Source: Rahnella sp. AA
GTDB lineage: Bacteria > Pseudomonadota > Gammaproteobacteria > Enterobacterales > Enterobacteriaceae
Assembly (NCBI RefSeq): GCF_002834385.1
Contig: NZ_PITQ01000012.1
Coordinates: 62,001 to 126,000 of the forward strand
Direction: 5' to 3'
Length of the DNA stretch: 64,000 nt
The notes beneath the pieces are model-generated. The model was given only the letters and a program-made list of their open reading frames with translations. It was not told the origin of the DNA and did no database searches. The position numbers and the translations under genes were made by a program. Shown piece by piece: positions 1,070 through 12,887 of the stretch (the first letter of the stretch is position 1; each line of letters opens with the position of its first letter).

Positions 1070-1093
1070 GCGGGGCTCAGGCTCCGCTTTTTT
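1070..1093 (+). terminator. Rho-independent terminator after dcrB
   Basis: A GC-rich stem (GCGGGGC pairing with GCTCCGC, one G-T pair, loop TCAG) is followed by six T residues on the plus strand, 25 bases after the dcrB stop. It also separates dcrB from the convergent ABC ATPase gene. Confidence 0.85.
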
Positions 1094-1094
1094 G

Positions 1095-2207
1095 TCATTG
1101 CCCCATGAGGAGCCCGGGCTGATTTATGCCATCGCAGGCAGTCGCGGGGATGCATTTGCCCGCTTCATTAAACAGTAAGATACTTTCTGCATTAAACCCA
1201 AAATTGATCGGCGTATCTTTAGCAAAGGAGAGCTGTTTCGACGATTTCATTTTCAGGATGTGTTCGCCAAAACGCGCGTACACCAGCGTGGAATCACCCT
1301 GTAATTCGGTGAAATCGACGAAAACTCCGAACTGATGATCCGTCACTTCATTAAGGCGCAACAGTTCAGGCCGGATTGCCAGCGACACCATTTGTCCTTC
1401 GTGAACCACCGGGAATTTATCTCCGAGCGGGAACATTGGCTGCCCGTTAATGCACAACTGACGGCCGTTAACCTGCGCCGGGATGATATTGATTTTCGGC
1501 GTGCCAATAAAATTGGCAACAAACAAACTGGCGGGAGAATTATAGAGTTCCACCGGCCTCCCGATTTGCTCAATGCGGCCCTGGTTGAGCACCACAATCC
1601 GGTCCGCCAGCGTCATCGCCTCAACCTGATCATGGGTCACATAAATCATGGTATTTTTCAGGCGGGCGTGTAGTTGACTGATTTCCTGACGCATCTGCAC
1701 GCGCAGTGCGGCATCAAGGTTCGACAGCGGCTCATCAAACAAAAATACTTTCGGCTGCTGAACAATGGAACGCCCGATGGCAACGCGCTGACGCTGCCCG
1801 CCGGAAAGATTTTGCGGTAACCGGTCGAGCATCTCATCCAGCCGCAAAATAAGAGCCGCTTCACTGATACGCCGCGCAATTTCATCCGGCGGTGTGCGGA
1901 TATTCTTCAGGCCAAAGGCCAGATTCTGCCTGACTGTCATGTGCGGATAAAGCGCGTAGGACTGAAAGACCATCGACAGGCCGCGTTTCCCGGCAGCCAG
2001 TTCCGTCACATCAGTTTCCTCAATGTGAATACTTCCAGCGCTCAGCGAATCCAGCCCAGCAATCATGCGCAGTAAGGTTGATTTACCGCAGCCCGACGGG
2101 CCAACCAGCACCAGGAACTCACCAGAATGGATCTCCAGAGATAAATCGGGGATCACGGCTGTCTTGTCATAGTATTTTTTGACATTTTTTAGCGTTAAAC
2201 CTGACAT
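1095..2207 (-). CDS. MalK/UgpC-type sugar ABC transporter ATP-binding protein
   Basis: ATPase subunit of a carbohydrate ABC importer of the MalK/UgpC/MsmK class, acting at the inner face of the cytoplasmic membrane. The 370-residue protein has a Walker A motif GPSGCGKST at 36-44, the signature LSGGQ at 134-138 and Walker B FLFDEP at 155-160. A C-terminal TOBE-type regulatory region occupies roughly 240-340, as expected for this class. The binding protein and both permeases are encoded on the opposite strand beyond the regulator, and no other ATPase is present, so this most likely powers that importer. It is the last gene of a minus-strand unit holding the LacI-type regulator and the manB remnant. 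Confidence 0.9.
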
Positions 2208-2239
2208 AGCGTTGTCCTTGGAAACAAAAAGATGAGCGG

Positions 2240-2421
2240 TTATGCCCCGGTAAGGGCGAGCAGTTTGCGTGTGGTTTCGGCTAATAACGCGGTGGAATAC
2301 CGGGTTTCTACGTTCGGGGCGATAAAAATGCGCAAACGCAGAACCGATACGGCATACAATATCCTCGTTTAATTCAGAACCCAGAATGCCGCGTATATCG
2401 TAAGCTTTAAAAACACGTCAA
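2240..2421 (-). pseudogene. Deletion remnant of a phosphomannomutase (manB/cpsG-like) gene
   Basis: Read on the minus strand from about 2421, one frame gives LTCF, then after one extra T gives [17 protein letters not shown] and a further [14 protein letters not shown]. This is very close to the N-terminus of E. coli ManB ([19 protein letters not shown]). Around 2310-2325 the match switches to a second frame reading [19 protein letters not shown] to a TAA at 2240-2242, resembling the ManB C-terminus (LNVESRGDVPLMEARTRTLL). About 1.2 kb of the middle, with all catalytic motifs, is gone, so no enzyme can be made. Intact homologues interconvert mannose 1-phosphate and mannose 6-phosphate. It lies between the regulator and the ATPase gene, on their strand. 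Confidence 0.82.
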
Positions 2422-2482
2422 TAAGGCTATATTCCATCCGGGAAATAGAAATAAAAATTTGCGTTTATGGCCCCACCGTAAA

Positions 2483-3508
2483 TCAGGTAGAACCACGAAT
2501 AATTAACGTAAACTCAAGGTCGTAGTGAATATTAGTTCTCCCTTCCAACAACAACGCCGCGGCTATACTCCCTTTTTTAACCGGATCCTGTGCGATGGTG
2601 GTCAGTCCGATTTGATCCTCTAATCTGGGGATATTATCGAAGCCGGTAATGGCAAGGTCTTGCGGAATATTTAAACCAGTCTTCCGGCAATAATTAATTG
2701 CGCCCTGAGCGAAACGGTCAGACAGACAAATAAGTGCCGTCATTTCGGGATTTATCGCCAGAAGTTCCTGCGCTGCTATTTCACCAAACTTTTCGTGATG
2801 GGGGGTTTCGCAAAGAAAGCATTTATTCAGATCAATATCCCATTCCCGAAAAGTATCCACACAGGAATTCACGCGGGTTAGCATGACGTCGTTATCGCCA
2901 TAAACACCCTCACTCAACGGCGTTAAACCATTTCGCCCTTGCAGTGAAGGGAAGGAAATAATCCCAAACTCACGATGCCCTTTTTCGAGCAGATGTAAAC
3001 AAATTTCCTTCATCGCCCTGTAGTTATCAATTGAGACGCTGCTGTGTGGCGGAATTTTAAAATCCGTCGTCACAACGGGCATATTTTTTGACAGCGCCTT
3101 AGCGATAATCTGATCATTATTGTGCGTCGCATTCAGGATATAACCATCCACCGCCGTGTTGATAACACTGGCCAGCGCGCCTTGCCCATTATACAGCGGG
3201 ATCAGGATGATGCTGACCCCATTCCGATCGCATTCACCGGCAACCCCCTGCATAAGCTGCACGTCATGGCTGTCTGTAAATACGTAACTGAGCGTGTCGT
3301 TAAAAATAATGCCAATGGCATCCGATCTGCCGGTTCGCAGAGCACGCCCCAAATTATCCGGTCCGTAAAAATTAACGGAATGCGCATAATCTATTATTCT
3401 TTTTCTTAAAGACACGGATAACTTACCCGGATTATTAAATGCATTCGACACCGTCGTATGTGTCACACCCAATTCTATCGCAATTTTTTTTAGCGTTATT
3501 TTACTCAC
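2483..3508 (-). CDS. LacI-family transcriptional regulator of the sugar locus
   Basis: DNA-binding repressor of the LacI/GalR family, 341 residues, a typical length. The N-terminus has the family helix-turn-helix and hinge (residues about 4-50: TLKKIAIELGVTHTTVSNAF, then a hinge-like segment). A periplasmic-binding-protein-like effector domain follows, with the family motif AITGFDNIP near residue 285. The gene is divergent from the transporter operon, and the shared 265-base region contains a perfect 14-bp palindrome of the size and type LacI-family proteins bind. It probably represses both units, including itself, until the sugar or a breakdown product is present. The coding sequence looks more AT-rich than the core genes nearby, consistent with acquisition by transfer. 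Confidence 0.9.
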   Translation of the reverse strand: MSKITLKKIAIELGVTHTTVSNAFNNPGKLSVSLRKRIIDYAHSVNFYGPDNLGRALRTGRSDAIGIIFNDTLSYVFTDSHDVQLMQGVAGECDRNGVSIILIPLYNGQGALASVINTAVDGYILNATHNNDQIIAKALSKNMPVVTTDFKIPPHSSVSIDNYRAMKEICLHLLEKGHREFGIISFPSLQGRNGLTPLSEGVYGDNDVMLTRVNSCVDTFREWDIDLNKCFLCETPHHEKFGEIAAQELLAINPEMTALICLSDRFAQGAINYCRKTGLNIPQDLAITGFDNIPRLEDQIGLTTIAQDPVKKGSIAAALLLEGRTNIHYDLEFTLIIRGST

Positions 3509-3609
3509 TACAAAATCCTTTAAACAAAGAAATTCACCTCTCTGAAACTAATTAACCCGCCAACATATGCTCACAAACCCCTCCCTTTTGCAACGAATAT
3601 AAAAATAAA

Positions 3610-3623
3610 GTTTAACGTTAAAC
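3610..3623. promoter_or_regulatory. Palindromic operator in the divergent regulator/transporter region
   Basis: GTTTAACGTTAAAC is a perfect 14-bp palindrome centred on CG, the usual geometry of LacI-family operators. It lies about 100 bases upstream of the regulator start and 150 upstream of the binding-protein start. Looser matches (ATAACGTTTG near 3645 and GCTAGCGTTT near 3671) may be secondary half-sites. The sequence TTATGTGACC at about 3632 resembles half of a CRP site. The rest of 3509-3773 is AT-rich, with no gene. Confidence 0.6.
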
Positions 3624-3773
3624 AAAATCATTTATGTGACCGTAATAACGTTTGTTCATTGAATGTACGTGCTAGCGTTTAAAATAGAATCTCATTCATA
3701 AAATAATAATATGAGTAATCATTAAATATAATTACTAATTATGAACCATACCCTAATGGATATAGGAAATAGC

Positions 3774-5036
3774 ATGAAAAAAATGAAACTGGCCGTTATT
3801 GCGGGTATCACGTTATTTATTTCTGGCTGCGGACCTGATGAGAAAGATCAAACCAGCATCAAAATGTGGATTGCGCCAAATATTACTCAGGAAGTGTATT
3901 GGGGTGAAGTAGTTAAAGAATGGAACACCAATCCGGCGAACAGAAAAGTGGAATTCACCCCCATTCCGGCAGCAGGAAGTTCCGAAGAAGCCATTATGAA
4001 CGCGCTGGCGTCGGGGACAGAACCGGATATTTCGACCAATATCTTTATCGGTTTTGCACGTCAGTTAGCTGAGCTGAAACAGCTCAATGATTATTCCAAA
4101 ATGCCCGGATTTCAGGCTCTGGTCGAAACCCGACATATGGGGAAAGCGGTGGCGTCATGGCAGTTCGACGGGCAGCAAAATGTTATTCCGATTTATATCA
4201 GCCCGGTGGTGTACTGGTGGCGCAGCGATCTGCTGGCAGAACAAGGTTTTGACCATGTACCGGCCACGTATGACGAGGTTTATACACTGTCAGAACGGAT
4301 GACGCAAAATCACAAAGGCTACAGCCTTCAAATCACCAGCGGCAAAAACTGGTGGGATCGCTGGTTTGATTTTATTCCATTGTATTACGCCGCCTCTCAG
4401 GGCACCCCTTATATTCAGGGCAACAAAGCCAGCTTTGATAATGACCCCGGCCGCCAGACCTTGGCCTTCCTCAACAAAATGTTCGTGAACAAGTGGACGA
4501 GCTACGATTTCAGCGCTTCGGATGATCCGCTGGCGACCGGCGCTGTGCTGGGCGCAGTACGCGGGCCGTGGGATATCGGGCGCTATGAAAAACAATTCCC
4601 CGAGGTGTTAAAAACCATCCGTATTGGCCCGATGCCGACGCTAACTGGCGAACCCGGCGTAGCCACCATGGCAGACAGCAAAGGGATCGTGATGTTCAGC
4701 ACATCGAAAGTGCAGGACGACGCCTGGAAATTTATTCAATGGGTATACAGCGATCCAAAACACGATCGCCGCTGGCTGGAACTCACCGGAATGCCGCCTG
4801 CCCGTGAAGACTTGCAGAGCAACCCGATTTTTGAAGAGTACCTGCAACAGCACGCATTAGTTAACGCTATCGCTTCTTACGTTCCGAAAGCCGTTCCACC
4901 TGCTCCGATTACTCAAACGGTCGAAGTCCAGCGGACGATGACCCAAATGATTGAAAAGCTGGTGTTTAAAAACAGCCCGATACCCGAGGTTATTCAAGAG
5001 TCTTCCCGCGAGATCGACAAAACTCTGGGGCAGTAA
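3774..5036 (+). CDS. Sugar ABC transporter substrate-binding lipoprotein
   Basis: Extracytoplasmic sugar-binding protein of the family-1 (MalE/UgpB-like) type, 420 residues. A lipoprotein signal peptide ends in the lipobox FISGC with the lipidated cysteine at residue 19, which is unusual among proteobacterial periplasmic binding proteins but shared by some sugar systems such as the E. coli ycj locus (known from memory). The start at 3774 is preferred over the in-frame ATG at 3741 because it has an AGGAAAT ribosome site and gives a proper signal peptide. It is the first gene of the operon, followed after three bases by the first permease. The ligand cannot be read from sequence; neighbours suggest a mannose/glucose oligosaccharide. 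Confidence 0.9.
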   Translation: MKKMKLAVIAGITLFISGCGPDEKDQTSIKMWIAPNITQEVYWGEVVKEWNTNPANRKVEFTPIPAAGSSEEAIMNALASGTEPDISTNIFIGFARQLAELKQLNDYSKMPGFQALVETRHMGKAVASWQFDGQQNVIPIYISPVVYWWRSDLLAEQGFDHVPATYDEVYTLSERMTQNHKGYSLQITSGKNWWDRWFDFIPLYYAASQGTPYIQGNKASFDNDPGRQTLAFLNKMFVNKWTSYDFSASDDPLATGAVLGAVRGPWDIGRYEKQFPEVLKTIRIGPMPTLTGEPGVATMADSKGIVMFSTSKVQDDAWKFIQWVYSDPKHDRRWLELTGMPPAREDLQSNPIFEEYLQQHALVNAIASYVPKAVPPAPITQTVEVQRTMTQMIEKLVFKNSPIPEVIQESSREIDKTLGQ

Positions 5037-5039
5037 GAG

Positions 5040-5909
5040 ATGATAAAAATGAAGGAGTCATCGCTCGGAGGAATTTTGGCTTGCACTTACCTCGGATATT
5101 CCCTGGTATTTTGGCTATATCCGTTTCTCTGGCTGGCGGTGTTGAGTTTTACCGACTGGAAATTTATTGGCACACCGTCTTTTAACGGAGTGAAGAATAT
5201 TGTCGCCGTTATGCAGAACCCTTTATTCTGGGCGTCGATTTATAACGTCTTTAAATTTCTAGTTTACTATCTTCCCATTGTATTTGTGTCTTCATTACTC
5301 TTTGCATTCGGGTTAAGAAAGATAAAATACGGCAAAGCATTTGTTGCTCTGAGTTTTCTTCTCGCTAATGTTTCCTCCGGCGTGGCGTATTCTATTGTAT
5401 TTTCCAAGCTGTTCAGCGAAACGGGGCCGATCAATACGTTTCTGATAAATATGTTAGGTATTAGTGTTCCATGGTTTACCCATCCTGATTTCGCCATGTT
5501 ATCTATTGCCCTTATTATTACCTGGAAATTTGTCGGCTACTACGGGCTAATTTTTTATTCCGGGTTGATTACTATTCCCAAAGATATTTACGATGCTGCC
5601 GATCTCGATCAAGCCACCAGCATTGGGAAAATATGGCATATCACCTTGCCCCTGATGAATGCTCAGATAGTCATGGTTCTGGTTCTGGCGATCACGGTGG
5701 CCTTCAGTATTTTCACCGAACCGTATCTCATCACCGGCGGTGGCCCGCTGGAAAGCACCACCACGCCAATGGTGGTGATGTATGAAGCCGCCTTCCGGCA
5801 GATGCAGCCAAGCTGGGCTGCCACCATGTCGATTATTGTCGCCTTATTCAGTTTTTCACTGATCTGGGTATTGCGCCGGTGCCTGGAAAAGAGAATCGAG
5901 ATCGTATGA
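5040..5909 (+). CDS. Sugar ABC transporter permease, MalF/UgpA type
   Basis: Inner-membrane permease of a family-1 carbohydrate importer, 289 residues with six predicted hydrophobic segments. The cytoplasmic coupling (EAA) loop is visible near residues 175-200 (DIYDAADLDQATSIGKIWHITLPL). It starts three bases after the binding-protein stop and overlaps the next permease by four bases (ATGA), so the two permeases are probably translationally coupled. It should pair with the downstream permease and the MalK-like ATPase encoded at 1095-2207. Codons are AT-rich compared with the core genes around it. Confidence 0.92.
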   Translation: MIKMKESSLGGILACTYLGYSLVFWLYPFLWLAVLSFTDWKFIGTPSFNGVKNIVAVMQNPLFWASIYNVFKFLVYYLPIVFVSSLLFAFGLRKIKYGKAFVALSFLLANVSSGVAYSIVFSKLFSETGPINTFLINMLGISVPWFTHPDFAMLSIALIITWKFVGYYGLIFYSGLITIPKDIYDAADLDQATSIGKIWHITLPLMNAQIVMVLVLAITVAFSIFTEPYLITGGGPLESTTTPMVVMYEAAFRQMQPSWAATMSIIVALFSFSLIWVLRRCLEKRIEIV

Positions 5910-6787
5910 TGAAGACAAAATCTGTGGGGATGCGGACAGACTCTCCCCCTCAAAAATATCAGATAAAAAGAACCCTCGGTTCCGTGGTGATCCACCTGCT
6001 GATGTTTATACTGGCAATAACCTGGCTATATCCGTATTTATGGATGTTCATCGGTTCATTCAAAAATACATCCGATATTTATACCACTTCCCTTTTCTCC
6101 GGCCCGCTGTCATTCGATAATTATACATTCCTGTTCGACGGTACGGGTAAGGCGGAAAAGCCGTTCCTGCGCACCTTATTTAATTCCATATTCATTACGT
6201 TAACCATAACGGTTTGCGTCACACTGACTTCGTGTTTGATTGGTTATGCGCTGGCTAAAATGGAATTTAAAGGCCGGGATATATTTAAAAACCTGCTCAT
6301 CCTGCAAATAGTCTTTCCCGCATTTATGTTTATTATTCCGCATTTTGTGCTGATGCGGGAACTCGGCATGATTAATTCCTATGGAGCACTTATTTTACCG
6401 TTCGTCATGAATGGTTGGGGTATTTTTATGATCTCCCAGAGCTTTAAAGGCACTCCAAATGACTATATTCATGCCGCAAAATTAGATCACGCCGGTCTTA
6501 TCAAGATTCTGCTCCACGTCATGCTGCCCCTCAACAAATCGATTCTCGCTATCGTCGCGATTTTTACCTTTACCAGTGCCTGGGATAATTTCCTCTGGCC
6601 GCTAATTGTCATGCAAGACGTTAACAAAATGCCGCTTTCCGTTCTTCTGGCGACGTTCAGCAAATCGTATGGCGTGTATGTCGGTCCGGTGCTGGCGGGG
6701 TCGGTAGTACAAACTTTACCAATCGTCGTTTTGTTTGTCCTCTTCAGGAAGCATTTCCTGGAAGGGATGTCGCTTTCACTTAAGTAA
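5906..6787 (+). CDS. Sugar ABC transporter permease, MalG/UgpE type
   Basis: Second inner-membrane permease of the same importer, about 293 residues, six hydrophobic segments. It has the EAA-loop sequence DYIHAAKLDHAGLIKILLHVMLPL in two overlapping parts (residues about 190-215), which docks on the ATPase. The ATG at 5906 overlaps the previous stop codon (ATGA) and is preferred to an in-frame GTG at 5879 that would lie inside the upstream gene. A conserved Trp-Pro-Tyr segment follows the first membrane helix. The next gene, a GH13 enzyme, starts ten bases after the stop, tying transport to intracellular breakdown. Confidence 0.92.
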   Translation: MMKTKSVGMRTDSPPQKYQIKRTLGSVVIHLLMFILAITWLYPYLWMFIGSFKNTSDIYTTSLFSGPLSFDNYTFLFDGTGKAEKPFLRTLFNSIFITLTITVCVTLTSCLIGYALAKMEFKGRDIFKNLLILQIVFPAFMFIIPHFVLMRELGMINSYGALILPFVMNGWGIFMISQSFKGTPNDYIHAAKLDHAGLIKILLHVMLPLNKSILAIVAIFTFTSAWDNFLWPLIVMQDVNKMPLSVLLATFSKSYGVYVGPVLAGSVVQTLPIVVLFVLFRKHFLEGMSLSLK

Positions 6788-6796
6788 CAGGCGTGA

Positions 6797-8350
6797 ATGA
6801 TGAATAACCCGAAGACATGGCAGGAGCGGATATTTTATCAGGTGTATTTACCGTCGTTCTGCGACGGTAACGCTGACGGATTAGGCGATTTTCAGGGGCT
6901 GATTTCTAAACTGGATTATCTCGCTGAGCTGGGGATTGGCGGCATCTGGGTCACCCCTTTTTATCCATCTCCGCTCAAGGATAATGGCTACGATATCAGC
7001 GATCACTGCGCCGTCGACCCACGCTTTGGCACGTTAGCACTTTTTGATGAACTGATTACGGTCTGTCATCAGCGCGATATTCTACTGGTGATCGACGTGG
7101 TGATTAACCATGTCTCGGACCAGCACCAGTGGTTCAAGTCGGCGCTTAGCCTACCTGACAGCCTGTTCCGCGACTTCTTTTTCTTTCGAGAGAAAACCAA
7201 CAACTGGACCTCATTTTTCGGCGGTTCAGCCTGGACGCAGGAGCCCGGCGGAACCGCCAGTTATTACCACAAATTTTCCCCTCAGCAGGTGTGTCTGAAC
7301 TGGTCGAATCCCGCTGTTGAACATGAAATTAAGAAAATCTTCGATTTCTGGATCGCACGTGGTGTCGATGGCTTCCGCTTTGACGTGATTAATTTTCTGA
7401 CCACCGACGGCATAGGCGACGATCACCCACCAGCCACAGCAGGTACGGAACCGCCTCATGATAAAGATATCAATCAACCCGGCGTGACGAACGTGGTGAA
7501 ACGCCTGTGTCGCCACATCCGCGCGCAGGGAGAATTCCTGCTGATTGGCGAAGTGGGCAGCGATCGCTTACCGGTGATGTCTCCTTATCAGGAAGCCGGT
7601 TTACTCGATGTTGTGTTTAATTTCAACCTTGGCAGCCAGAAACACTTTGATATTTCGGCGATTTTCGGCGAAATGCAGGCCATGGAAACCACACTTTACG
7701 GCTTACCAACGCTGTTTTTCTCCAGCCATGATATGTCACGCATGATCAGCCGTTTCGGTGAGGCCTCCCGCGATATTTCCCGCGCAGTGGCCGTCTTCGC
7801 TTTGCAAATGACCGCCCGCGGCCTGCCTTTTATCTTTCAGGGTGAAGAAATCGGCATGACCGATTTTGTTCCTCAGAATTTACAGCAGATGCAGGATGTT
7901 CAGGGCATCACTCATTACCACACTGCCATTTCACAAGGCATGAATGAGAAGCAAGCATTCACTTATGCTTTGCCGTTCTGCCGCGATGCCTCCCGTGCAG
8001 CGGTTCCCTGGACGCCTGCGGATGCCGGTGAAGATCAGATTAACGTCGAAAGTGAAAGTAAGTACTCACAATCAATCATCGCGAATTATAAACAACTGAT
8101 CCACATCAGAAATACTCATCCCGCCCTTCAGCAGGGCCGCTACCAGCACCTACGATTACTTAAACAATGCCTGATTTTCCGTCGCCATCTGGCTGCGGAA
8201 TGTTTGGAAGTGATGATCAATTTCGGCCCGCCAGTTGCCAATGACGGTTTTGGCGATGGCAATGCCGTTTTGTTTGGCGCGGACGAACCGCTGCTGAAAA
8301 AAAACCAGATTCTTATCAAAAAGGTAACTCATGAAAATGCTCAGAAGTGA
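6797..8350 (+). CDS. GH13 family alpha-glucosidase-like enzyme
   Basis: Cytoplasmic glycoside hydrolase family 13 (alpha-amylase superfamily) protein, 517 residues, no signal peptide. The four conserved GH13 regions are visible: DVVINH at 100-105, GFRFD with the nucleophile Asp at 196, IGEVG with the acid/base Glu at 252, and SHD with the third Asp at 312. The last motif is SHD where most relatives have NHD. Overall layout (WQERIFYQVYLPSF at the start, GIGGIWVTPFYPSP) is of the oligo-1,6-glucosidase/alpha-glucosidase group, slightly shorter than usual at the C-terminus. It probably removes an alpha-linked glucose from the imported sugar; a phosphorylase activity, as in E. coli YcjM, cannot be excluded. 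It overlaps the next gene by 20 bases. Confidence 0.85.
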   Translation: MMNNPKTWQERIFYQVYLPSFCDGNADGLGDFQGLISKLDYLAELGIGGIWVTPFYPSPLKDNGYDISDHCAVDPRFGTLALFDELITVCHQRDILLVIDVVINHVSDQHQWFKSALSLPDSLFRDFFFFREKTNNWTSFFGGSAWTQEPGGTASYYHKFSPQQVCLNWSNPAVEHEIKKIFDFWIARGVDGFRFDVINFLTTDGIGDDHPPATAGTEPPHDKDINQPGVTNVVKRLCRHIRAQGEFLLIGEVGSDRLPVMSPYQEAGLLDVVFNFNLGSQKHFDISAIFGEMQAMETTLYGLPTLFFSSHDMSRMISRFGEASRDISRAVAVFALQMTARGLPFIFQGEEIGMTDFVPQNLQQMQDVQGITHYHTAISQGMNEKQAFTYALPFCRDASRAAVPWTPADAGEDQINVESESKYSQSIIANYKQLIHIRNTHPALQQGRYQHLRLLKQCLIFRRHLAAECLEVMINFGPPVANDGFGDGNAVLFGADEPLLKKNQILIKKVTHENAQK

Positions 8351-9398
8351 TAAAAACCCGCTGCTAACACCTGCCGACGTCGCACCTTCCCAGCCGGGAT
8401 GGAAGGTTGATTGTGTTTTTAATGCAGGCGTATGTTCCTACAAAGGGGAAACCCTGCTGTTGCTTCGCGTTGCAGAAAGCGTGATATCGGCTGACGCCAA
8501 TAGCCTGGAAGTACCGCTCCTGGTGAACCGGCAGAACGTCTGGCAGCCGGGCACGAAACGTTTTCGCCGCGATGACCCGGCGTATGATTTCACCGACCCC
8601 AGAATGATTGCGCTGAAAGCCGACCCTTCGGTGATCTGGCTGACCTCTATGTCGCATCTGCGTCTGGCACACAGTCAGAATGGCGAAGATTTTACTGTCG
8701 ATCCACAGCCATTTTTGACTGCCGATACGCAATATGAACAATTTGGCTGCGAAGACCCGCGTATCACGCTGATCGACGGCATTTACTACATTAACTATTC
8801 GGCCATTTCGCCGTATGGCATTTCCACCGCGCTGGCGACCACCACTGATTTTGTCACAGTGGAAAAGCGCGGCGTGATTTTTTGCCCGGATAACCGCGAT
8901 GTCTGTTTCTTCCCCGAAAAAATTAACGGCAAATATCAGGCGCTAACCCGCCCTTCGCCCAAGCATTTCGGTAAGCCAGAGATCTGGATATGTGAATCAC
9001 CGGACATGCTGCACTGGGGCAATCATCGCCATTTGCTGGGCAGCACACACGGCGACTGGGACGCATTGAAGCTGGGCGGCGGCGCACCACTGATGAAAAC
9101 GGCGCGCGGCTGGTTGCAGATTTATCACGGCGTGGATAAAGATCAGCGTTACTGCCTCGGCGCGATGCTGCTTGCGATAGATAATCCGCTAAAAATCATA
9201 GCAAAATCCCCCACAATGCTGCTCCAGCCCGAAATGATTTATGAAACGGAAGGTTTCTTCGGCAATGTCGTTTTCACCTGCGGCGCATTGCTGGAACAGG
9301 ACACACTGAAAATTTATTACGGCGCGGCCGATGAATGCATTGCGCTGGCAACTATGCCGCTCGATGCCTTATGGGCGCATCTTGGCCTGCCGCTGTGA
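8331..9398 (+). CDS. GH130 family beta-mannoside phosphorylase
   Basis: Glycoside hydrolase family 130 protein, 355 residues, expected to fold as a five-bladed beta-propeller in the cytoplasm. Family hallmarks include VFNAGVCSYKGETLLLLRVAE at 29-49 (given here in two overlapping parts), the catalytic-Asp motif GCEDPRIT at 139-146 (Asp142), FFPEKI at 193-198 and LGGGAPL with YHGV at 248-268. Known members phosphorolyse beta-mannosides to mannose 1-phosphate plus a shortened acceptor, although one subgroup hydrolyses. The retained Arg, Lys and His residues in these motifs favour phosphorolysis. Acceptor and linkage cannot be decided from sequence. The adjacent manB remnant fits production of mannose 1-phosphate. 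Confidence 0.87.
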   Translation: MKMLRSDKNPLLTPADVAPSQPGWKVDCVFNAGVCSYKGETLLLLRVAESVISADANSLEVPLLVNRQNVWQPGTKRFRRDDPAYDFTDPRMIALKADPSVIWLTSMSHLRLAHSQNGEDFTVDPQPFLTADTQYEQFGCEDPRITLIDGIYYINYSAISPYGISTALATTTDFVTVEKRGVIFCPDNRDVCFFPEKINGKYQALTRPSPKHFGKPEIWICESPDMLHWGNHRHLLGSTHGDWDALKLGGGAPLMKTARGWLQIYHGVDKDQRYCLGAMLLAIDNPLKIIAKSPTMLLQPEMIYETEGFFGNVVFTCGALLEQDTLKIYYGAADECIALATMPLDALWAHLGLPL

Positions 9399-10309
9399 GT
9401 GCGGTAGAAGCTTTGCAGCAGCAATTTCATGCACTGAAATTACCCACACCCACCGGAGAAAAAATCCACTTTTCCGGCATTGGGGATGACGACGTTTATA
9501 ACCTGACCGCACCGTTTCGTTGCGGTGATCTTTTGGTCATTGCCGGTCGCGTCGAGCCCAGAAACTCTGAGTTATCACAGGTAAAATTTTTTGAATTTGA
9601 CGGTATCCGTCAGTGCAAATTGCTGCCTGACGCGCCGGTCTTCGCCTTGCAGGATCCATTTATTACCCTTATTGGCGGAGAATTTATCTTTGGCGGCGTC
9701 AGCGTCGAACCGGCGGATGACACCGGAGAAATCCTGCGTTGGAAAACCCTGCTGTACCGGGGTGCCAATATCTATTCCCTGCGCCCTTTTTTTATCGGGC
9801 CGGAAGGTATGAAAGACATCCGCCCGGTGGGTTTACCGGATGGAAAAGTCCTGCTGTTTACCCGCCCGCAGGGCGAAACCGGCGGGCGTGGCACTATCGG
9901 CTTTGTCCTGCTGGATTCACTGGACGATCTGACCCTCAGCAAAGTAGCTCAGGCGACATTATTAGAGGGACAGGTCAGCCCGGAGGAATGGTGTGGCGTG
10001 AATGCAGCATACGTTCTGGATGGGAATAACGTCGGTGTTCTGGGCCACGTTGCCCGTTTTGATGCCTGCGGAAACCGTAACTATTACGCCTGTTCGTTTG
10101 TTTTTAATCATCAGACACATCAATGCACGGCGCTGAAAATTATCGCCGAGCGTAAACAGTTTAAACCCGGTTGCGCCAAACGGGCCGATCTGGAAGACGT
10201 CATCTTCCCCGGAGGTCTTTACTTTGCCGGACAATCATCGCCCCGCTTATATTGCGGAACCAGCGATTGTGAAGCGCAATGGATAGAAATCAATTACCCC
10301 TTTAAATAA
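9395..10309 (+). CDS. DUF1861 (beta-propeller) protein, possible mannoside phosphorylase relative
   Basis: Protein of about 304 residues matching what I remember of DUF1861, a family found in bacteria and Leishmania with a five-bladed beta-propeller fold. The family start (FSGIGDDDVYNLTAPF) and an ALQDPFI motif equivalent to the catalytic loop of GH130 are visible. From memory, the Leishmania members are mannosyltransferase/phosphorylases acting on beta-1,2-mannan; whether this protein has such an activity is inference. The GTG at 9395 is chosen because it makes a four-base GTGA overlap with the GH130 stop and the alignable region starts there; ATG 9371 is the alternative. No signal peptide, so probably cytoplasmic. 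Confidence 0.7.
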   Translation: MSAVEALQQQFHALKLPTPTGEKIHFSGIGDDDVYNLTAPFRCGDLLVIAGRVEPRNSELSQVKFFEFDGIRQCKLLPDAPVFALQDPFITLIGGEFIFGGVSVEPADDTGEILRWKTLLYRGANIYSLRPFFIGPEGMKDIRPVGLPDGKVLLFTRPQGETGGRGTIGFVLLDSLDDLTLSKVAQATLLEGQVSPEEWCGVNAAYVLDGNNVGVLGHVARFDACGNRNYYACSFVFNHQTHQCTALKIIAERKQFKPGCAKRADLEDVIFPGGLYFAGQSSPRLYCGTSDCEAQWIEINYPFK

Positions 10310-10322
10310 CTGGAAATTATAA

Positions 10323-11501
10323 ATGAATAAAGCTCAGATAATATCGTTCCTTTGTCTCACACTTCCTTTCCCTCTCGATGTACTGGCGGAGGAAAAATCG
10401 CCAAAAATATCGTCACTCCCCACCTGTATAATGCCCGCCACCCAACCCGAATTGGTAAAGAAGGAAGCTATTAAAACAAAACCAGAAAATATTAATACCG
10501 CCATTTATCCGGGTGACAAAATTAAAATGAAACACCCGAGCGGTAAAGTCGTGGATGCGGTGATCAGCATCGACAATGATAATATTGCGCTGGTGGAATT
10601 AGAGGAAGGTGACACCGGGTATAATCTTCACGGCAACTGGCTGACGGAATATAAAATAGAACACTTCAGAAATGAAGGTTCTTCGCATAACTCCCGCCCG
10701 GTTCACGAATGGGTATTCGGCGACGGACGTGTGAATCTGGGAGATACCGGTTTTAACATGGGTTTTGTGCTCAAAAAAGTGTCCTTCAAAAACGAAATTC
10801 ACGACACATCGAATAATCATACCGATTTTCGTATGACAGAAATGGAAGTCCGGCCTGCGTATGCCTATGAAACCGGTAAGCACTGGATGATGTTCGAAGC
10901 CATTTACCTGGGTAAAACCGGTTATGAGAAACCGACGGTGGCGGAAAGCAACGCCTACCTGATTGGCGGCGACGGCTATGGTTTCCGGCCTTACTATCGC
11001 TATCAAGCCACGGATAAACTGGCGGTGAATACCGACATTAAATGGCTGACCGAAGACAAAGGAGCCAACGGGGCAGACTCGGGGAAATTTGTTTTTTATG
11101 AAGCGCTGCTCAACGTAAGTTATCGTGTCACGGATGATTTCACTCTGGGCACGGAGTTCTTCCGTAAGGAAGGCAACGACTATGACAAAAACGGCAACCG
11201 CGGCTCCAATGTGGCCGAAAAAGAGATCCGCCCCTGGGCAACGTATCACTTGGACAAACACAATTTCCTGTTAAAAATGGAGCCACAGCACAAACGAATT
11301 AAAGACCGCAAAGGGAACGAAACTTACAGCGCGAAAGCCTGGAAATATATCGTTAACTACAGTTATGCGATTACGCCAAAAGTGTATTTCGTCTCCGAAG
11401 CATTTTACCGGACCGAAGGGGATAAGGAAATTGACGGAATGACAGGATTCGACGACCAGACCACCAACTTTGGCAAAGTCGGCTTTAATTTTATCTTCTG
11501 A
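10323..11501 (+). CDS. OmpG-like outer-membrane porin
   Basis: Outer-membrane beta-barrel protein, 392 residues, probably a monomeric porin of the OmpG type that lets oligosaccharides cross the outer membrane. It has a signal peptide (cleavage likely after LAEE-preceding Ala, about residue 22), alternating polar/hydrophobic strands with many aromatic residues from about residue 130, and a C-terminal Phe (FNFIF), the assembly signal for barrel proteins. About 90-100 residues between signal peptide and barrel are extra compared with E. coli OmpG (301 residues). It starts 13 bases after the DUF1861 gene, so it belongs to the same operon. E. coli ompG also sits beside a sugar ABC/phosphorylase cluster (ycj), which supports the role. 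Confidence 0.8.
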   Translation: MNKAQIISFLCLTLPFPLDVLAEEKSPKISSLPTCIMPATQPELVKKEAIKTKPENINTAIYPGDKIKMKHPSGKVVDAVISIDNDNIALVELEEGDTGYNLHGNWLTEYKIEHFRNEGSSHNSRPVHEWVFGDGRVNLGDTGFNMGFVLKKVSFKNEIHDTSNNHTDFRMTEMEVRPAYAYETGKHWMMFEAIYLGKTGYEKPTVAESNAYLIGGDGYGFRPYYRYQATDKLAVNTDIKWLTEDKGANGADSGKFVFYEALLNVSYRVTDDFTLGTEFFRKEGNDYDKNGNRGSNVAEKEIRPWATYHLDKHNFLLKMEPQHKRIKDRKGNETYSAKAWKYIVNYSYAITPKVYFVSEAFYRTEGDKEIDGMTGFDDQTTNFGKVGFNFIF

Positions 11502-11618
11502 TATTTATGAATAACGAAAAACAATAACAATTATCAACATATAAAATCAAACTGAATTTATTTTTTCATTACCTCCGATATCTTCAGGAATGAAGAGTGA
11601 AAATAAAAGGATCGTTGC

Positions 11619-12887
11619 ATGAGTCTTCTTACAAGAATATTACTTATCTTCATTTTTACGATCTCCTTACCTTCTTTTGCTTCGCCGGTTAATACCACGC
11701 ATCTGGATTCACTTTACGAAGAAAGAACGGCCCCGGACGGCACGTCGGTAGGAATAATCCATATTTACAGTGAATACCCCAAATATGAATGGGTTAAAGA
11801 TCCGATTGAGGGGGTTTCCGCTGTCGATGACATTTCCCGTGCACTGGTGTTTTATACCGGCTTGTACGCCCATCAGCCGGAACCTGCGGTGATGAATAAA
11901 ATCATTCATCTGACCCGCAGCATTTTGATGATGCAGGCTGAAAACGGTTACTTCTATAATTTTATCTATCCGGATAACATCATCAATACAACCTATAAAA
12001 CCAGTTTGGCCGAACCGAACTGGTGGACATGGCGGGCTTTATGGGCACTGGCCAGCGCCTATCCAGTGGTGAAGGAACACGATAAAACACTCGCGGCGAA
12101 GATGTACGACGTCCTGTTTACCCGCACGCAGGCCCTGCGTGGGTTTGTGCAGGAAACGCAAACCGTGACTACATTGCAGGGCATTACTCTGCCCGTATGG
12201 ATGCCCAATGACGGCGCAGATCAGGCCGCTATTTTGTTGCTGGCCCTGACGCGCATGCAGCAAATTTCGCCGCAGCCGCACATCGAAAAAATGATGAGAA
12301 CGCTGGCTGGTGGCATCATGACCATGCAAATCCGCGATGTCACATCCCCGGTCAATGGCGTATTCCTGAGTTGGAAAAATACCTGGCATGGCTACGGCAA
12401 CAATCAGGGTTATGCGCTGCTCGAAGCTGGAACCGTGCTGAGTGACAGGGATATGGTGAAAGCGGCGTTTTACGAACTGGATAATTTTCACCCCTGGTTA
12501 ATCAGTCAGGGCTATCTCACCAGTTTTTCCGTCAGTCAGTCCGGGGGAAAGGTTGTCGTGAGTGATGAGCAGCAATTCGCGCAAATCGCTTACATTTTCC
12601 GCCCGATGATTTTTGCCAATTTGCGGGCTTATGAAATTTCGCGGGACGTTCGCTATATCGATCAGGCCGTGACGCTGGCGATGTGGTTCTTCAGGGGCAA
12701 TGTCGCCGGGGTTCAGATGTATTTACCGGACACCGGACTGGCGTTTGACGGGCTGGATTCAGGTAAAAGTTTCAACCGCAACTCTGGCGCGGAATCGACC
12801 ATAGAAACGCTGCTGGCTCTGGATGCGATTGAACGCTCGCCGCTGGCAAAAAAACAACTGGAGGAAAAATTACGTCGCGGAAAATAA
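11619..12887 (+). CDS. Exported protein of unknown function, probable (alpha/alpha) barrel
   Basis: I do not recognise a characterised family. The 422-residue protein begins with a signal peptide (MSLLTRILLIFIFTISLPSF, then A-S-P), so it should act in the periplasm. The mature part is rich in helices with regularly spaced Trp/Tyr and Ala, for example NWWTWRALWALASAYP near 130-145, PNDGADQAA near 195 and NSGAESTIETLLALD near 390, a pattern seen in (alpha/alpha)6-toroid carbohydrate enzymes. It has its own AAAAGGATC ribosome site 117 bases after the porin gene and is the last gene of the locus. A role in trimming the sugar before import is an inference from position only. Confidence 0.75.
   Translation: MSLLTRILLIFIFTISLPSFASPVNTTHLDSLYEERTAPDGTSVGIIHIYSEYPKYEWVKDPIEGVSAVDDISRALVFYTGLYAHQPEPAVMNKIIHLTRSILMMQAENGYFYNFIYPDNIINTTYKTSLAEPNWWTWRALWALASAYPVVKEHDKTLAAKMYDVLFTRTQALRGFVQETQTVTTLQGITLPVWMPNDGADQAAILLLALTRMQQISPQPHIEKMMRTLAGGIMTMQIRDVTSPVNGVFLSWKNTWHGYGNNQGYALLEAGTVLSDRDMVKAAFYELDNFHPWLISQGYLTSFSVSQSGGKVVVSDEQQFAQIAYIFRPMIFANLRAYEISRDVRYIDQAVTLAMWFFRGNVAGVQMYLPDTGLAFDGLDSGKSFNRNSGAESTIETLLALDAIERSPLAKKQLEEKLRRGK

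What the first reader, a model, noticed from the sequence alone, without database searches (positions are those of the whole stretch)
1095..12887. Accessory locus for import and phosphorolysis of a mannose/glucose oligosaccharide
Seen: LacI-type regulator, complete ABC importer, GH13 enzyme, GH130 protein, DUF1861 protein, OmpG-like porin and an unknown exported protein in two divergent units. Established: GH130 enzymes usually release mannose 1-phosphate; E. coli ycj has the same plan (porin, ABC importer, GH13 phosphorylase) for another sugar. Inference: the substrate carries both an alpha-glucose and a beta-mannose unit, enters by the porin and is broken down inside the cell. I know of no characterised locus with this exact gene set.
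Basis: partly seen in the sequence, partly recalled or inferred. Interest (0 to 1): 0.75.

Follow-up and report, generated by a model that had tools for sequence, protein, structure and literature searches.

The report
Rahnella beta-1,2-mannoside uptake and phosphorolysis locus
A Rahnella bacterium carries a gene cluster that probably imports short chains of beta-1,2-linked mannose (perhaps with a glucose attached) and cuts them with phosphate; similar clusters occur in many other bacteria, and this one includes an exported protein of a family whose job is not yet assigned.

Summary
The ten genes are present in two divergent units in a Rahnella genome. The locus is not unique: six of 80 fetched DUF1861 loci (Psychromonas, Yersinia, Serratia) hold all ten genes, and a shorter form is common in Bacillota, including Listeria. 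The chemistry points to beta-1,2-mannosides rather than an E. coli ycj-like sugar: GH130 is nearest to Lin0857 (beta-1,2-mannobiose phosphorylase) but below NCBIfam's equivalog cut-off, and DUF1861 is the family of the Leishmania beta-1,2-mannan (GT108) enzymes. Relatives carry a phosphomannomutase-type gene in the cluster; here it is a deletion remnant, with two intact homologues elsewhere. An operator, TTTAACGTTAAA, is conserved across genera. GH13 keeps its catalytic residues but is missing near 39 of 74 related GH130 genes, so an alpha-glucose unit is plausible, not shown. The OmpG label failed. The freshest part is the exported protein: a relative of an unannotated solved structure (7TEM), with distant relatives fused to GT4 glycosyltransferases, 15 of 19 of them beside GH130 genes. 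I read it as a candidate new carbohydrate-active family. No activity was tested.

The parts
1095..2207 (-). MalK/UgpC-type ABC ATPase (370 aa); last ~17 residues outside the match to another Rahnella (G395)
   Evidence: 90% over 353 aa to G395
2243..2411 (-). remnant of a phosphomannomutase-type gene (pieces of its start and end, middle gone)
   Evidence: 34 aa at 79% and 23 aa at 83% identity to the intact ~454-aa Rahnella rivi protein; one search also finds 2310-2417
2483..3508 (-). LacI-family regulator
3611..3622 (+). palindromic operator candidate TTTAACGTTAAA between the divergent units
   Evidence: exact in 11 of 14 gaps examined (window included), 1-2 mismatches in the other 3
3741..5036 (+). 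sugar-binding protein; ISGC (lipobox-like, by eye) near its N terminus
   Evidence: best solved relative 4gqo Lmo0859, E 6e-65
5040..5909 (+). ABC permease 1
5879..6787 (+). ABC permease 2
6797..8350 (+). GH13 oligo-1,6-glucosidase-like enzyme; motifs with D196, E252, D312
8331..9398 (+). GH130, nearest solved relative beta-1,2-mannobiose phosphorylase Lin0857
9335..10309 (+). DUF1861 (GT108-type) protein; Asp of LQDPF aligns with the residue changed in MPT-2 D94N; true start may be 9371
10323..11501 (+). outer-membrane-type protein of an unnamed family (not shown to be OmpG)
11619..12887 (+). exported protein, relative of 7TEM (YPO2471); candidate carbohydrate-active (alpha/alpha) family

Best explanation
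This is a catabolic cassette for beta-1,2-mannooligosaccharides. The LacI protein represses both units from TTTAACGTTAAA until the sugar or a product is present. The substrate passes the outer membrane, probably through the 10323-11501 barrel; the exported 11619-12887 protein acts on it in the periplasm (processing or trimming); the ABC importer takes it in. Inside, GH13 removes an alpha-glucosyl unit when there is one, DUF1861 (GT108) and GH130 cut the beta-1,2-mannose chain with phosphate to mannose 1-phosphate (GH130 finishing the disaccharide), and phosphomannomutase and mannose-6-phosphate isomerase from elsewhere in the genome lead it into glycolysis. Shown here: gene content, family matches, conserved order, conserved operator sequence, mutase remnant and homologues elsewhere. 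Inferred: every enzymatic step, the regulation and the direction of transport.
For: GH130 closest to Lin0857 (5b0p, E 1.7e-103) and to the mannoside synthase Uhgb_MS (E 1.9e-80) over most of its length. DUF1861 closest to Leishmania MPT chains 6q4w/6q50 (E 3e-40, 8e-40; with a profile, 6q50 E 1.9e-71), with the D94 position kept; GT108 enzymes are described as acting on beta-1,2-mannan in passages of PMC8950772. A GH130 gene in the fetched stretch in 75 of 80 DUF1861 loci. Phosphomannomutase-type gene in 12 of 80, ManA and an APH-type kinase in two Psychromonas, GH2 beta-mannosidase-type cluster in 16 of 80 and ManA cluster in 7 of 80 (representatives named). Binding protein nearest to Lmo0859, which PMC2860498 places in lmo0858-lmo0865. 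Operator sequence conserved. Two mutase homologues and one isomerase elsewhere in the genome.
Against: No activity or ligand data for any protein of this locus. GH130 is under NCBIfam's equivalog cut-off for beta-1,2-mannobiose phosphorylase (453 against 550 bits). Passages of PMC4599007 name one lysine as the beta-1,2 determinant; I could not map it (window has NRD where Lin0857 has NKD; the K of FPEKI is shared). GT108 enzymes also run as transferases, so synthesis is not excluded. Three of 80 loci (L051, L053, L077) showed none of the ten partner genes counted. The relatives' mutase is CpsG-like but under that model's cut-off (725 against 801 bits).
Confidence: 0.72

Rival explanations
1. 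One reading: the dedicated substrate is a mixed oligosaccharide holding both an alpha-glucose and a beta-mannose unit, and GH13 is an obligatory step.
For: GH13 keeps its catalytic motifs and occurs with the cassette in Pseudomonadota and Bacillota; its presence is clustered on the GH130 tree (9 changes against 24.9 in shuffles, 0 of 500 as low), which fits an old member lost several times.
Against: 39 of 74 GH130 rows have no GH13 in the fetched locus, among them Yersinia similis, which has the other nine genes, and Sphingomonas (some contigs are cut, e.g. AwEntero, where absence says nothing).
Confidence: 0.3
2. A synthesis or reserve system: DUF1861 builds beta-1,2-mannan as its Leishmania relatives do, and the locus turns it over.
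For: GT108 proteins have dual transferase and phosphorylase activity (PMC8950772 passages).
Against: Importer, binding protein, LacI regulator, outer-membrane-type and exported proteins point to uptake; no GDP-mannose enzyme among the ten proteins.
Confidence: 0.07
3. A ycj-like system for glucosylglycerate or kojibiose-type sugars.
For: Similar overall plan of regulator, importer, GH13 and outer-membrane protein.
Against: YcjM matches GH13 over 156 aa only, at 25% (E 2e-10 for that pair), YcjN matches the binding protein at E 0.01, OmpG does not match, and no Pfam hit of the ten proteins corresponds to ycjQRSTU.
Confidence: 0.03

Closest known systems
Listeria lmo0858-lmo0865 / lin0857 locus
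   Same: LacI, binding protein, two permeases, GH13, DUF1861, GH130 and a phospho-sugar mutase in one cluster of a L. monocytogenes record; Lin0857 is listed as a beta-1,2-mannobiose phosphorylase (passages)
   Different: No match to the ATPase, outer-membrane or exported protein, nor to this LacI at E 1e-3, in the fetched stretch; DUF1861 precedes GH130; six matched proteins at 33-47% identity. In the passages read, a maltose role had been proposed and was excluded (PMC2860498)
Thermoanaerobacter Teth514_1788/1789 cluster
   Different: Two GH130 enzymes; the passages and figure legend name GH5 and GT4 genes but no GH13 or DUF1861; the authors propose that it feeds GDP-mannose synthesis
Leishmania mannogen enzymes (GT108)
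   Same: DUF1861-type sequence, conserved Asp
   Different: Eukaryotic reserve polysaccharide (passages)
E. coli ycjM-W and ompG
   Same: General plan only
   Different: Different enzyme set; no measurable kinship of OmpG to the outer-membrane protein

Membership tests
GH130 | PF04041 domain above its gathering score | tested here: met
   188.6 bits, cut-off 26
GH130 beta-1,2-mannobiose phosphorylase (Lin0857 type) | NCBIfam equivalog cut-off NF050092 | tested here: not met
   453 bits, cut-off 550; so not filed as that equivalog
GH130 beta-1,2-mannobiose phosphorylase (Lin0857 type) | lysine that fixes beta-1,2 specificity (Lys199 of BT3780) | tested here: inconclusive
   K of FPEKI is shared with Lin0857, Uhgb_MS (FEEKI) and 9fj8; K of NKD is R here; which of them is Lys199 was not settled
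GH130 beta-1,2-mannobiose phosphorylase (Lin0857 type) | phosphorolysis of beta-1,2-mannobiose | not testable with these tools
   needs purified enzyme
GT108 / DUF1861 | PF08950 above cut-off | tested here: met
   334 bits, cut-off 28
GT108 / DUF1861 | Asp94 of Leishmania MPT-2 | tested here: met
   D of LQDPF, aligned to the D94N chain 6q4z, invariant in the 9 rows of A1
GT108 / DUF1861 | beta-1,2-mannan phosphorylase or transferase activity | not testable with these tools
   needs purified enzyme
GH13 alpha-glucosidase | PF00128 and the three catalytic carboxylates (roles recalled) | tested here: met
   326 bits; D196, E252, D312, kept in the 21 rows shown of 35 aligned
GH13 trehalose-6-phosphate hydrolase (TreC) | NCBIfam TIGR02403 cut-off | tested here: not met
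   368.5 bits, cut-off 799
OmpG | sequence kinship to E. coli OmpG | tested here: not met
   BLASTP E 0.22, hhalign probability 0.7%
ycj locus | YcjM-type phosphorylase, ycjQRS, ycjT, ycjU | tested here: not met
   GH13 matches YcjM over 156 aa at 25%; no Pfam hit of the ten proteins corresponds to ycjQRSTU
7TEM/YPO2471 family | full-length sequence kinship | tested here: met
   E 2.1e-153 over residues 4-420
GH127 or D-glucuronyl C5-epimerase (considered for the exported protein) | Pfam gathering score | tested here: not met
   window protein 13.7 bits against 24.9 for PF07944, no match to PF06662; among 5 members best E 6.4e-4 (GH127) and 3.9e-4 (C5-epimerase, 2 of 5)

The most novel reading that the evidence does not exclude
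The exported protein (11619-12887) founds an unassigned carbohydrate-active enzyme family, a secreted (alpha/alpha)-barrel enzyme that works on beta-1,2-mannosides outside the cytoplasm, and its relatives fused to GT4 glycosyltransferases beside GH130 genes belong to a wider, uncharted beta-mannan pathway in Pseudomonadota.
Probability: 0.35. Interest if true: 0.65.

Novelty: new variant of a known kind. Interest (0 to 1): 0.48.

Why it matters
If right, it gives a testable substrate class to a sugar locus found in Listeria, Yersinia, Serratia, Paenibacillus and others, whose genes carry only generic sugar-transport and hydrolase names in the Listeria and Metabacillus records read here; it gives DUF1861/GT108 a bacterial catabolic role; and it puts a function within reach for a solved structure (7TEM) that is titled only as a putative exported protein. 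The natural beta-1,2-mannan sources for such bacteria are, to my knowledge, poorly known, so the inducer would be informative.

Tried and rejected
OmpG identity and ycj kinship were tested and dropped. TreC was considered for GH13 and dropped. A second exact operator site in the genome (C31:333384) lies inside a LysR-type gene, so I treat it as chance. Structure models of the exported protein and the outer-membrane protein were too poor to use (mean pLDDT 45 and 32, folded as single sequences), so no fold search was made. GH127 and glucuronyl C5-epimerase matches of the exported family are too weak to claim. Literature: listings (20 of 24 papers shown; 4 of 4; 13 of 13; 30 of 76; 9 of 9; 4 of 4; 0; 7 of 7; 5 of 5) showed no study of this locus; of the four papers with lmo tags I opened one. 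The library lacks most subscription journals; the Lin0857 paper itself was not read. Rows dropped: L019, L020 and L024 were left out of the GH13 alignment and the GH130 tree as copies of L028, L027 and L025; GH130 matches under 250 bits were left out of the tree.
Full report
What is there. Pfam and NCBIfam name the ATPase, LacI regulator, binding protein, permeases, GH13, GH130 and DUF1861. The last two proteins have no Pfam family above cut-off. The locus sits between dcrB and yigL; in a same-genus genome without DUF1861 (G402) glpT stands between these genes (names confirmed by NCBIfam). The nearest named relative is Rahnella rivi (79% identity in DUF1861); its contig has the same length and position as G401:C12, which genome search puts in the window's genus, so I take the window to be a Rahnella. 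DUF1861 is over its cut-off in 4 of 394 genomes of the order, window genome included (six more had only sub-threshold matches), and in 4 of 14 of the genus.

The same set elsewhere. A pattern scan of a collection of 84,980 species with a DUF1861 alignment gave 399 relatives, a lower bound, of which the best 80 were kept. With tblastn bits over 100 in the fetched stretches, GH130 is present in 75 of 80, permease 2 in 70, permease 1 in 62, binding protein in 54, GH13 in 29, ATPase in 16, the exported protein in 13, a phosphomannomutase-type gene in 12, the outer-membrane protein in 8 and a Listeria-type mutase in 4; three loci had none of these. Some stretches are cut by contig ends, and permease and ATPase matches can come from other transporters. 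Six of 80 hold all ten genes, and the mutase too: two Psychromonas, two Yersinia, two Serratia; one more Rahnella (G395) does as well. Y. similis has all but GH13. R. rivi, G394 and a Citrobacter show no outer-membrane or exported gene in the fetched stretch.

Chemistry. GH130 matches Lin0857 (E 1.7e-103, residues 2-346) and Uhgb_MS (E 1.9e-80). Lin0857 is listed as a beta-1,2-mannobiose phosphorylase in passages of PMC8950772. The score is below the NCBIfam equivalog cut-off, so I do not file it as that enzyme. DUF1861 is the family of the Leishmania MPT chains, and the residue changed in MPT-2 D94N is kept. The review passages describe GT108 as dual transferase-phosphorylases acting on a beta-1,2-mannan. 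The binding protein's best solved relative is Lmo0859. Neighbours in relatives fit mannose use: a CpsG-like mutase (725 bits, cut-off 801), type I mannose-6-phosphate isomerase and an APH-type kinase in Psychromonas; clusters with a GH2 beta-mannosidase-type gene in 16 of 80 loci, ManA in 7 and ROK kinases in 9 (one or two representatives of each named).

A lost gene. Relatives carry a phosphomannomutase-type gene between ATPase and LacI. In the window that 275-base gap holds only pieces of the start and end of such a gene. Two homologues (59% and 57% identity, open frames of 462 and 454 aa) and one mannose-6-phosphate isomerase lie elsewhere in the genome, so the pathway need not be broken. 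A GH130 search of the genome found only this one.

Regulation. The gap between LacI and binding protein holds TTTAACGTTAAA at 3611-3622. Of 14 such gaps examined (window included), 11 have it exactly and three have it with one or two mismatches; in several there are two to six copies, neighbours often 32-36 bases apart. In the window alone, matches with up to two mismatches are no more common than chance (3 found, 2.1 expected), so the case rests on conservation across genera. The whole genome has one other exact site, inside a LysR-type gene.

The GH13. It keeps the catalytic motifs in the 21 rows shown of 35 aligned. The four Rahnella copies shown lack about 14 residues that the other 17 rows have at least in part. 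On a GH130 tree of 74 rows, 35 have GH13 in the fetched locus; the label needs 9 changes against 24.9 in shuffles, 0 of 500 as low, which fits an old member lost several times. An alpha-glucose cap or core is therefore plausible but optional.

The exported protein. It has a signal-like N terminus and a solved relative, 7TEM, titled 'Putative exported protein YPO2471'. A profile of 14 sequences (A4) finds a 907-residue protein with a signal-like start directly after the cassette of Jeotgalibacillus (E 1.9e-61; Pfam finds nothing in it above cut-off), and the C-terminal part of longer proteins, mostly 760-880 residues. Two of these are GT4 by Pfam, and the GT4 part of one matches all 19 loci examined. 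A profile comparison with four of them gives probability 99.1%, E 8.4e-19, and their own profile finds 7TEM (E 4.1e-13). Of the 19 loci, 15 have a GH130 gene in the fetched stretch of about 1.5 kb on either side (11.6 kb in all for L062), also when only the window's GH130 is the query. The 19 are the 7 other places, 11 of the 21 other places, and L062; L062 was found through DUF1861, the others through the exported protein alone. Several come from one genus or genome, so they are not independent. Controls: GH13 and binding protein 0 of 19, DUF1861 1 of 19 (L062). The link to GH130 could belong to the GT4 part rather than to the shared domain. That the exported protein is an enzyme, and which, is inference; weak matches to GH127 and glucuronyl C5-epimerase models suggest an (alpha/alpha) barrel. 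My own models were too poor to help.

Comparison with ycj. E. coli ycj shares the plan but not the parts: YcjM matches GH13 at 25% over 156 residues, YcjN the binding protein at E 0.01, and OmpG does not match the outer-membrane protein.

Literature. I saw search listings, and passages of PMC8950772, PMC8626586, PMC4264767, PMC2631605, PMC2860498 and PMC4599007. PMC2860498 says that lmo0858-lmo0865 had been proposed for maltose and that another system does that job. PMC2631605 lists YPO2474 and YPO2477 in a table of Y. pseudotuberculosis expression; by position I take these as GH130 and binding protein of the same locus, which is inference.

Noticed in passing
window 1080-1140: The end of the ATPase gene matches a 61-base stretch that several other Rahnella carry near glpT, and glpT is missing between dcrB and the ATPase here; it looks like a deletion junction at the left edge of the cassette.
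   Followed up: partly
L125 4235-16925 (G394): About 12.7 kb of other DNA lies between yigL and the DUF1861 gene in this Rahnella, where the outer-membrane and exported genes would be expected.
   Followed up: no
L139, L140: GT4 proteins with three (L139) or two (L140) GH130 matches nearby, in L139 also a ManC-type nucleotidyltransferase gene, look like an uncharted beta-mannoside pathway.
   Followed up: partly
L031, L036, L103 and similar Bacillota loci: A zinc-type alcohol dehydrogenase gene follows the GH2 gene in many Bacillota cassettes (cluster in 15 of 80 loci), possibly a clue to what the mannose is attached to.
   Followed up: no
window 6797-8350: The four Rahnella GH13 proteins shown lack about 14 residues (around AGFS...PW) that the other 17 rows shown have at least in part.
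   Followed up: no
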